From Saccoglossus kowalevskii (lineage: Eukaryota; Hemichordata; Enteropneusta; Harrimaniidae), in NCBI RefSeq assembly GCF_000003605.2, contig NW_003123907.1:196326-229605 (forward strand): a DNA stretch of 33,280 nucleotides, given 5' to 3'. A model generated the notes under the pieces. That model saw only the letters and a program-made list of their open reading frames with translations. It ran no database searches and was not told where the DNA came from. Position 1 is the first letter of the stretch. Each line of letters begins with the position of its first letter. A program made the translations under genes and the position numbers. Of this stretch, positions 18,259 through 21,819 are shown one piece after another.

Positions 18259-19395
18259 GATTATCCCTCCCACCACAATAGATCCCAGCCTCTGAATGTC
18301 GGCATTTTCTGCAATGGGGTCTTTAGCCAAGAATATTTAGGAAATAAACATCTTTCCCAATTACCTCAACAGCCACTGTCATTTGCAGAAAAAGGTGACT
18401 ACAATGGTTTGTATGCTGCATGGAACCAGACAAGCTACCTAGGGAGGTGATAGATTGAAACGTTGAAGAAATAGGCGGCCATCATAATAAAGGGAGGCAC
18501 TCGGTGAGAAGAAACTAGGCAGCTGAGAGATTGGCTGATGTCTCTAGAAATATTTCTCCTCTCACTGCAGATCGACAGGTGAGGAACAACCATGGTCGCA
18601 CTGGTATTGATGTAATGGCCCTAGTTTCAGAAGAACAGTCTGCTGCCATGTATGTGGTTAATGATGACTTCTTTGCAATTAATCATCTGCATGACAAATG
18701 GACATTTGTGGTTTTGGGCCCCTCGAGTGTTTGCTAGTGTTAATTGCGAAAAGTACAGACAGGACACAGGGACTGTAACTAGTACCTGCAATCAGCAATT
18801 GGTATCATCTCTGGGATGTGAATAAGGGTAGCTTTATTCGACCTCACTGCACTCACCTGGAACTCGGTCAACTTGTCAACAACAAATATGAATTACAATT
18901 GGCTGCATATCATGCCAAGGTGAGCAAGACAATCATCTCTATAGGGATTGGGGATGCTGCCGTTTTGCAGTTTGTATGGTGTAAGTATGATTGACGCGAG
19001 TACTAATGATAAAGACCATGGTAGGGTGACAAATACCGGTAGTATGATAGCCCAGGATTTCATAATAAAAACCTACACTAAACCTTCATACAATGTTCAT
19101 TACTTATTTAATACATAGTAGAAATAACCTAGTAACTGTGATATAGAAGGATGGACAGAATGTGCCTTGTTCTGCATATATCATGTTTATTAATACACCA
19201 CGAAGCTCTGACAGAGATGCGAGCATGTTCTCTGACTCCATCTGAAAAAACAAGTTCCTATCTGAAAATAGAAGTGAAAATGGAGCATTGCTTGTCAATG
19301 GTCCACAAGCAGAGAAAGCAATAGTGGAGTCCATTCCTGACAAGCATAGAACTATCAGTGTCATTGATAACGAGAGTTTCCCCTTAGTGTCGTAA
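18259..19395 (+). pseudogene. Decayed plus-strand coding region, family unknown
   Basis: Four consecutive plus-strand open segments have protein-like composition but lie in different frames and are separated by stops. 18259-18450 gives 63 codons including SFAEKGDYNGLYAAWN. 18513-18737 includes GIDVMALVSEEQSAAMYVVN and DDFFAINHLHDKWTFVV. 18779-18994 includes THLELGQLVNNKYELQLAAY. 19246-19395 includes AEKAIVESIPDKHRTISVID. Acidic, Gly- and Trp-containing stretches of this kind are unlike translated noise from AT-rich DNA. No intact reading frame spans them. One GTAAGT at 18981 and a cactgcag at about 18551 could be splice sites, so a small multi-exon gene is the alternative. I could not identify a transposase, reverse transcriptase or other family. 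A 156-codon minus-strand open frame at 19104-19574 overlaps the last segment and is probably its shadow. Confidence 0.4.
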
Positions 19396-21014
19396 CTATT
19401 AGTGAAACATGAGCATTGATGTTGTCCCAAATGATTGGCAGTACCATGTACGAGTATTCTGAAAGGGGTGCACATGATCTGTTTTTGCACCTTGAAATGT
19501 AGTATATTTGCATGACTGAAAGTGGAACACCAGTTCTGTGACCTAATGGCTATAATATGTGAATTAAAGTTCAAAACAATAGACTTATTTTGGCTTCATG
19601 ATAAAATCGATGTGATTGATAGTGACAGTATGCAAGTGATGGATACAATTTGCAACAAATAATTTGTTGTTACATACAGCCATGTAATACCTTGTAATAT
19701 ACATGCATACAAATGAAAGATATAATCATTTAGGTTTCACACACACACTAAACAGATATTTCTTGATTTGATCATGAATATCCACTTTTGAGAGGCACTA
19801 CAGCACATGTTGTTCAACACACCATGCACCCATCCAATTCTGAGTACCCATGAGAAAATGACCAGATGTCATTTTTAAACAAAATAAATAATATAGTAAA
19901 CATTACGGGCAACTTGGTGACCAAGCTAACAGATATTAAGGTTTTTTCGCAAAAAAAATCTTAACATTTCCCCTTTCATAGAACAGTTGTACTAGAACAC
20001 GAAATTGTAATTACAAACTATTTTAAGGGTAGTTTTGTAAAACACATTCTAAATTTATTTGCCAATCTAATTACACATTTAAAACACTACAAAGACGTTG
20101 TTTACTAAATTCACAATGACTGGTAAAGTATGAAGACTATTCAATCTGAAACATAATACTATGCACACTATATATTGACGTTATTACAGACAGACAATAC
20201 AATTACTTAAAGTAAAAAGGTCATGTGCACGATGTAGTTCTATGCCACTTAAAATTAATTTGCATGCAACAATATAGACACTACATGTAGCAATATCTTA
20301 ATGTACCCATTTTGTTTAATAAAGCACAATCTCATCATAAGAACATTTTATTAGCAGCTTAATTGGTCTAGTCGAAAGGACTGCTGCCATGTTCTTAATC
20401 ATGACTGACTGAACATAATTAACCTATTTGTAAAAATAAAGGTATCATTTCATTCCAGACTACCTTATTATGCCAGCTGTGCTGAGTAAGATGCTGGCAT
20501 TAAAATGAATGATATGACACACACTACTGGTGATAGCGTACCTGCCAACGTTCTTCAAACCTGCTGAGGTATGACCATTCGTCATAGGCCGAACTGCAGA
20601 AGTCTGTAAACAAATTAAAGTGGGCCTCTTAGACTTAAAATGTGAAGACTCAATGGATTTGCAATATTGATGGTGCTGTTAGTTGATCTTTTTGTAAGTG
20701 TGATAGAAAAAACTGCCACAACATGATAAATTGTTTTTCTTCTGGCATTCACTTCCTTGTGACTTCAGCTTAGTTATCAACATACAGACTACGTACATCG
20801 AACTCTCCTTTTCCTCCTTTGTAACGCGCAATCCTATTATCAGCTTGAAGACAGGAATGACCATTGATTCCCACTTATAACAAAAATACAATCACATTTT
20901 GCAGCTTTATAAATCCCAGTAAAAGTGTGCCACAACACACTTTAGTATGCATCTTATATATTCAGTCATTTCCTACAGTACAGTTTCCGTTTTACACTTT
21001 ACTTCCTATTTATT
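19396..21014. other. Intergenic stretch and probable PDCL 3' UTR
   Basis: No coding segment is supported here. On the minus strand, downstream of the PDCL stop codon, AATAAA hexamers (TTTATT on the plus strand) occur at 21009-21014, 20347-20352 and 20054-20059, giving candidate polyadenylation sites at several distances. The first touches the stop codon and would leave an extremely short UTR, so a distal one is more likely. A near-perfect small palindrome lies at 19936-19964. Confidence 0.45.
19936..19964. repeat. Small AT-rich inverted repeat
   Basis: TTAAGGTTTTTT at 19936-19947 faces AAAAAAAATCTTAA at 19951-19964 across a 3-base CGC loop. Transcription from either strand would give a hairpin of about 12 pairs with one mismatch. 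It could be a piece of a palindromic repeat or chance in an A/T-tract-rich area. Confidence 0.45.
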
Positions 21015-21111
21015 TCAGTCCAGATCCAAATCACTGTCATTATCCTCAGTGTTAGTGGAGCCACGGATAACTGCTGGCAGCTGTTCATCTTTTCTAGTCA
21101 ATATACCATGT
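21015..21111 (-). CDS. PDCL: PDCL (phosducin-like) last coding exon, acidic C-terminus
   Basis: The minus-strand acceptor is excellent (tctctttaaacattcttgcag). The exon's first base completes the GA left by the exon at 29020-29144, giving Glu. It then encodes HGILTRKDEQLPAVIRG followed by STNTEDNDSDLDLD and TGA, so the protein reads FLQEHGIL into a strongly acidic tail. A loop leading into an acidic Asp/Glu/Ser C-terminus of the EDSDLxxD type is characteristic of phosducin-like proteins. The phase agreement with an exon almost 8 kb away, plus the family-typical ending, identifies it. Phosducin-family proteins bind G-protein beta-gamma; PhLP1 acts with the cytosolic chaperonin CCT to fold G-beta and release it for pairing with G-gamma. 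An AATAAA overlaps the end of the stop codon region (21009-21014). Confidence 0.9.
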
Positions 21112-21819
21112 CTGCAAGAATGTTTAAAGAGAAAATTGAAGAGATGAAAAGGACAACCAAGTTATCTAGACACGCAAGTCAATCATGCCTTTTATTGACA
21201 TGAAATTGTATAAACATATATACACTTAGCAACATCTGGTGTCTTTTACCTAATTTTCATTCTAATTGTAATTAGTAATTGGAATTAATCATGAATTTAT
21301 TGTTTAAACAATCAAAACAGTGCATTGCAGCATGATACACCAAGATTAAAGAAAGATAATTACTTAGATCACCACCTTATTTTTCTTATCATCCACTACA
21401 ATTATACACTAAATAACGAATAGTCGACTATACAAATAGAAATAACATCATACCTATACAGTTCAGAAAGAAACAATACAACAAAGATTTATGCAAGCAA
21501 ACACAACACAACATTACTATAACATAAAATGAAATTATGAAATAAATGAATACAATTTGTTTATGCAATATGTTAGTGTCATGCAATATTATATTTACAT
21601 TGCAATTAGCAGACATGATTAGTAGTACAATTACATACATTTGTCACATTTTGTTCAGTAGATAACAGCTCTTAGAAATAGTATTTTCTGCTAAATATCA
21701 CGAAATACATTTTATGTACAGTTCAACTATGATAACCTTGCTTTTAATATACTCTTTTAAGAACCAAATGAATATTAAAGCCCATAAAGTAATTCACGGT
21801 GTGCACATAAAATTGATTT

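What the first reader, a model, noticed from the sequence alone, without database searches (positions are those of the whole stretch)
19000..21200. Sharp fall in CpG content near the PDCL 3' end: a candidate methylation-domain boundary
Hand counts give 18 CpG in 2101-2520 and 18 in 8341-8760, about 9 in 15001-15420, but only 3 in 27001-27420, 4 in 28001-28420 and 2 in 31021-31440. The low-CpG region coincides with the PDCL gene body, including introns and repeats. Many invertebrates methylate bodies of broadly expressed genes, and methylated CpG decays to TpG/CpA over time. A housekeeping co-chaperone beside a CpG-rich, probably tissue-restricted membrane-protein region fits that mosaic. The inferred boundary lies between the decayed plus-strand segment and the PDCL stop codon.
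Basis: partly seen in the sequence, partly recalled or inferred. Interest (0 to 1): 0.7.

Follow-up and report, generated by a model that had tools for sequence, protein, structure and literature searches.

The report
CpG-depleted domain over PDCL gene
In this stretch of probable animal DNA the letter pair CG is about three times rarer across the 3' part of a phosducin-like (PDCL) gene and its downstream flank than in the neighbouring 17 kb, likely because that region has long been methylated in the germ line, which would be an ordinary pattern for an invertebrate.

Summary
The CpG fall is real. All six hand counts are exact. With tandem arrays masked and local composition corrected, CpG observed/expected drops from 0.98 to 0.34 (log-likelihood gain 66.3; largest of 300 block shuffles 24.2); GpC shows no step. 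But the best change-point is 17,501 (support 17,351-18,301), not 19,000-21,200: the 'decayed plus-strand segment' lies inside the CpG-poor side, which runs about 3.5 kb past the PDCL stop codon (21,015-21,017). Whether the fall is sharp cannot be told: widths from 44 bp to 13 kb fit nearly equally. Two PDCL exons are confirmed by Pfam and PDB, a last exon by phase and C-terminus. The likeliest cause is germline gene-body methylation, as documented in Ciona, oyster and stick insect. Against pure decay: TpG+CpA rises by 8.3/kb masked (16.2 unmasked) where 22.4 CpG/kb are missing, neither TpG nor CpA alone steps beyond the shuffles, and ApG/CpT shifts too (0.77 to 0.96). No methylation data, species name or genome was available. 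Ordinary, with a corrected boundary and one unexplained shift.

The parts
1..17500 (.). CpG-normal region, O/E 0.98; 32.0 CpG per kb, G+C 0.36; no Pfam family at its cut-off in six frames
17351..18301 (.). support interval of the CpG change-point (best 17,501)
17501..33280 (.). CpG-poor domain, O/E 0.34 (arrays masked), 0.30 unmasked; reaches the window edge
32203..32316 (-). PDCL exon (Phosducin profile positions 158-198), AG/GT splice sites, 2 CpG
29020..29144 (-). PDCL exon (Phosducin profile positions 195-236), AG/GT splice sites, 3 CpG
21015..21111 (-). PDCL last exon with stop codon (21,015-21,017), in phase with the previous exon; acidic C-terminus DSDLDLD; 1 CpG; no Pfam match of its own
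21936..23566 (.). 84-bp tandem array in the last PDCL intron; one column with CG, TG and CA states; O/E 0.27
24779..26186 (.). 26-bp tandem array in the last PDCL intron; two columns with CG, TG and CA states; O/E 0.21
32606..33280 (.). 30-bp tandem array upstream (in gene direction) of the first PDCL exon seen, running to the window edge; O/E 0.06
1491..1898 (-). open frame of 136 aa with 9 N-glycosylation sequons (0 of 5000 residue shuffles reach 9), probably an exon of an extracellular or membrane protein

Best explanation
CpG is depleted about threefold from about 17.5 kb to the right edge of the window, a region that contains the 3' part of PDCL and about 3.5 kb beyond its stop codon, and this is likely the mutational scar of long-standing germline gene-body methylation there. 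In this model (inferred) methylated CpG deaminates to TpG or CpA over many generations across exons, introns and minisatellites alike, while the left 17 kb, with a probable membrane-protein exon and no other recognised gene, stayed largely unmethylated and kept CpG at its expected level. The 3' edge would follow the end of transcription or of its chromatin mark, not the stop codon. Shown: the CpG fall, its approximate place, PDCL exons, and the inclusion of introns and arrays. Inferred: methylation, deamination and the cause of the edge.
For: CpG O/E 0.98 to 0.34 after masking and local correction, no GpC step. C+G falls from 359.7 to 335.5 per kb (24 per kb) while CpG falls by 22.4 per kb, about one C or G per lost CpG; simulated decay of the left sequence gives G+C 0.338 against 0.335 seen. 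CpA+TpG O/E rises from 1.27 to 1.41, change-point 18,551 (13,251-19,701), p=0.015 uncorrected. Of the 8 array columns that hold any CG, 3 hold CG, TG and CA together: 26-bp column 26 (TG 30, CA 11, CG 7, TA 4, AG 2), 26-bp column 17 (TG 41, TA 6, CG 3, CA 3, TT 1), 84-bp column 2 (CA 12, CG 6, TG 1, GG 1). Phosducin exons. [quoted passage not shown] CpG loss with TpG and CpA gain in stick insect genes (PMC2747282, passages).
Against: TpG+CpA rises by only 8.3 per kb masked (16.2 unmasked) against 22.4 CpG per kb lost; simulated decay predicts CpA+TpG O/E 1.50, observed 1.38. TpG alone (gain 3.8, shuffle maximum 8.7) and CpA alone (2.3, maximum 5.6) show no step. ApG/CpT rises from 0.77 to 0.96 (0 of 1000 permutations, change-point 16,101, 15,301-17,651), more than decay predicts (0.83). 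The other 5 of 8 CG-holding array columns do not hold all three states, and non-CpG C/T variants are common in the 26-bp array (GC/GT minimum count 40 against CG/TG 12). In oyster, methylated and unmethylated regions had no obvious relation to CpG content (PMC5481141, passage). No methylation call, transcript or species.
Confidence: 0.7

Rival explanations
1. The two sides differ in origin or history: the left is inserted or otherwise foreign DNA, or the contig is wrongly joined near 16-18 kb, so the CpG step is a junction of two sequence compositions.
For: ApG/CpT also shifts (0.77 to 0.96) with a support interval of 15,301-17,651 that overlaps the CpG interval at 17,351-17,651; AC/GT differs too (129.2 against 114.8 per kb; its own best change-point is 26,301, 9,201-29,201, p=0.001).
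Against: G+C differs only about as CpG decay predicts; the fit allows a ramp of kilobases; no inverted repeats of 30 bp or more were found in the window; no transposon or viral Pfam domain at E up to 1 in the six frames of 1-17,500.
Confidence: 0.14
2. The CpG-poor domain is methylation decay, but it is set by another unit: a convergent plus-strand gene or old transposon at 18.2-19.6 kb, merged with PDCL into one domain.
For: O/E in 17,501-21,014 is 0.42, between the left intergenic part (0.97) and the PDCL introns (0.32 and 0.25); in Ciona two converging genes are occasionally covered by one methylated domain (PMC3827831, passage).
Against: The stretch 17,001-22,000 matched no Pfam family in six frames, and 18,181-19,700 no PDB sequence in three plus frames; depletion is deeper inside PDCL.
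Confidence: 0.1
3. No methylation: the difference comes from base composition, codon use or the tandem arrays.
For: The right side holds three large arrays with O/E 0.06-0.27.
Against: The step persists with arrays masked and local C and G corrected, and GpC has no step; the known exons are only 336 bp of the right side.
Confidence: 0.05

Closest known systems
Ciona gene-body methylated domains (PMC3827831, passages)
   Same: domain over a gene including introns; edge not tied to the stop codon; unmethylated neighbour
   Different: there measured (CAP-seq, bisulfite); here inferred from sequence only
Oyster mosaic methylome (PMC5481141, abstract and passages)
   Same: succession of methylated and unmethylated regions, most methylation in gene bodies
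   Different: that paper reports no obvious relation of the regions to CpG content, while the present inference rests on CpG content
Stick insect Medauroidea gene CpG loss (PMC2747282, passages)
   Same: CpG depletion with TpG and CpA excess in protein-coding genes (0.59, 1.28, 1.31)
   Different: five gene fragments, 2,525 bp in all; here about 15 kb with introns, O/E 0.34

Membership tests
Invertebrate gene-body (mosaic) methylation domain | CpG depletion over a transcription unit relative to its flank | tested here: met
   0.34 against 0.98
Invertebrate gene-body (mosaic) methylation domain | TpG+CpA excess matching the CpG loss | tested here: inconclusive
   direction right (1.27 to 1.41); size 37% of the CpG loss masked, 72% unmasked; TpG and CpA singly show no step
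Invertebrate gene-body (mosaic) methylation domain | introns included | tested here: met
   O/E 0.25 and 0.32 in the two introns, arrays masked
Invertebrate gene-body (mosaic) methylation domain | domain edge at the transcript end | tested here: inconclusive
   edge about 3.5 kb past the stop; transcript end unknown; several polyA-like hexamers, no control made
Invertebrate gene-body (mosaic) methylation domain | 5-methylcytosine present in the germ line | not testable with these tools
   no methylation data; the search of the own genome did not complete
Invertebrate gene-body (mosaic) methylation domain | gene broadly expressed | not testable with these tools
   no expression data
CpG island (left side) | short and G+C-rich (definition recalled) | tested here: not met
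   17.5 kb at G+C 0.36
PDCL / Phosducin family | Phosducin domain PF02114 | tested here: met
   6.8e-16 and 8.6e-12 for two exons
PDCL / Phosducin family | closer to phosducin-like protein than to phosducin | tested here: met
   exon 29,020-29,144: phosducin-like protein 8.8e-15 against phosducin 1.8e-09; exon 32,203-32,316 does not decide (phosducin 1.4e-08, phosducin-like 3.6e-08)

The most novel reading that the evidence does not exclude
The edge at about 17.5 kb marks a true compartment border: methylation travels with transcription about 3.5 kb beyond the PDCL stop codon, and the same border also switches a second, CpG-independent mutational bias (ApG/CpT), so that sequence alone records two germline mutation regimes side by side.
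Probability: 0.15. Interest if true: 0.4.

Novelty: new member of a known kind. Interest (0 to 1): 0.15.

Why it matters
It shows that raw sequence in one window can place a probable germline methylation domain and, roughly, its 3' edge without methylation data. As biology the mosaic is well documented; the only part that goes further is the accompanying ApG/CpT shift and an edge well past the stop codon, both testable genome-wide.

Tried and rejected
Composition artefact: rejected, GpC has no step and local correction leaves the CpG step. Tandem arrays as the cause: rejected, masked. Sharp step: not established. Transcription-strand skews as a marker of the transcript end: no use; sense-strand T-A and G-C skews are 0.043 and 0.041 in the left intergenic part, 0.043 and 0.022 in the last PDCL intron, 0.061 and 0.086 in the one before. 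Identity of the plus-strand segment: Pfam in six frames of 17,001-22,000 and PDB in three plus frames of 18,181-19,700 gave nothing. Identity of the left glycoprotein-like frame: no Pfam match, and none of 3 candidates scored in the protein search. Weak Pfam matches below cut-off (E2F_CC-MB 0.23; TPR_TTI1_2nd 0.058; DUF6128 0.011) were set aside as chance. Not scanned with Pfam: 22,001-26,199 and 32,601-33,280. Rfam: none at gathering score. Species: not settled; the PDCL search gave 6 proteins of 13 candidates, best 53% identity over 97%; two carry a source's name, a hypothetical protein of Dermacentor silvarum (59% over 71%) and 'Phosducin'. On re-checking, I added the single TpG and CpA results and the misses, and lowered the main odds from 0.72 to 0.70 and raised the junction rival from 0.13 to 0.14.

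Full report
Observation. The six hand counts are exact: 18, 18, 9, 3, 4 and 2 CpG. In 1-kb windows CpG O/E is 0.65-1.41 up to 17.5 kb (with dips to 0.65-0.69 at 2.5-4.5 and 13-14 kb), 0.71 in 17,001-18,000, and 0.05-0.47 in the windows starting at or after 17,501, apart from the last 280 bases, which hold no CpG. A one-change-point Poisson model, with expectation from local C and G and with tandem arrays masked, puts the change at 17,501 (support 17,351-18,301), O/E 0.98 to 0.34, gain 66.3; the largest gain in 300 block permutations was 24.2, and recursive segmentation (gain threshold 7) finds no further change-point. The control GpC has none. Each side is homogeneous.

The stated interval 19,000-21,200 lies inside the CpG-poor domain (O/E 0.29-0.46 in 1-kb windows starting at 19,001-20,501). 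The plus-strand segment is itself CpG-poor (0.35). The data do not say that the fall is sharp: widths from 44 bp to about 13 kb differ by at most 2.23 log units, the best being 6.6 kb. In 3-kb blocks from 9 kb on, O/E runs 1.26, 0.80, 0.79, 0.40, 0.33, 0.39, 0.26, 0.26, as compatible with a ramp as with a step.

The gene. Two minus-strand exons match Pfam Phosducin (6.8e-16 and 8.6e-12). In the PDB the exon at 29.1 kb matches phosducin-like protein best (8.8e-15, phosducin 1.8e-09); the exon at 32.3 kb matches phosducin (1.4e-08) and phosducin-like protein (3.6e-08) about equally. Exon limits follow from AG and GT sites read off the sequence: 32,203-32,316, 29,020-29,144, and a last exon 21,111-21,018 followed by the stop codon 21,015-21,017. 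The last exon has no Pfam match of its own; it is assigned by reading phase and by a C-terminus like the DSDLDID of two of the five homologues fetched (P0001, P0004). The last intron is 7.9 kb and holds the 84-bp and 26-bp arrays. PDCL continues off the right edge; its 5' exons and promoter were not found in the window.

The left side. No Pfam family reaches its cut-off in the six frames of 1-17,500. A 136-aa minus-strand frame at 1,491-1,898 has nine N-X-S/T sequons, reached by 0 of 5000 residue shuffles, so it is probably an extracellular exon; it found no homologue. 'Tissue-restricted' cannot be tested.

Mechanism. CpG loss to methylation-driven deamination predicts loss of one C or G per CpG and gain of TpG or CpA. 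The first fits: CpG -22.4 per kb, C+G -24 per kb; simulated decay gives G+C 0.338 against 0.335. The second fits in direction only: TpG+CpA rises by 8.3 per kb masked and 16.2 unmasked, O/E 1.38 against a predicted 1.50; pooled CpA+TpG has a change-point at 18,551 (p=0.015, one of ten classes, uncorrected), while TpG and CpA singly stay below the shuffle maximum. Of eight array columns that hold any CG, three hold CG, TG and CA together, as deamination on both strands would leave; five do not, non-CpG C/T variants are common in the 26-bp array, and polarity is unknown. Exons hold more CpG (6 in 336 bp) than introns (5.9-8.5 per kb), as selection on codons would do (inference).

Unexplained. 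ApG/CpT rises from 0.77 to 0.96, change-point 16,101 (15,301-17,651), 0 of 1000 permutations; AC/GT also shifts (p=0.001) but with an ill-placed change-point (26,301, 9,201-29,201); ten dinucleotide classes were tested. CpG decay of the left would give ApG/CpT 0.83. Within each side, blocks show no correlation of CpG with ApG/CpT (17 and 12 blocks, p 0.51 and 0.82). So either the two sides live under two mutation regimes, or they differ in origin. An assembly join or insertion cannot be excluded here.

Literature. [quoted passage not shown] In oyster most methylation lies in gene bodies in a mosaic, but with no obvious relation to CpG content (PMC5481141, abstract and passages). CpG O/E is a used proxy (PMC8330077, passages). 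Stick insect genes show CpG loss with TpG and CpA gain (PMC2747282, passages). The finding is thus most likely an instance of a known kind. That the species is an invertebrate is inferred from the mosaic itself and from distant PDCL homologues; it is not shown.

Noticed in passing
1-17500 versus 17501-33280: ApG/CpT is under-represented on the left (0.77) and near expectation on the right (0.96), with a change-point near that of CpG; not explained by CpG decay.
   Followed up: partly
21936-23566: 84-bp tandem array with a higher-order period of 419 bp (about five units) inside the last PDCL intron.
   Followed up: partly
24779-26186: 26-bp tandem array, about 54 copies, inside the last PDCL intron.
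   Followed up: partly
32606-33280: 30-bp tandem array running to the window edge, 1 CpG in 675 bp, open in several frames.
   Followed up: no
1491-1898, minus strand: 136-aa frame with nine N-glycosylation sequons and no detectable homologue; by eye a hydrophobic stretch follows at 144-275 minus.
   Followed up: partly
18200-19600: Unidentified segment with open pieces on the plus strand and a 163-aa open frame on the minus strand at 19,107-19,595.
   Followed up: partly
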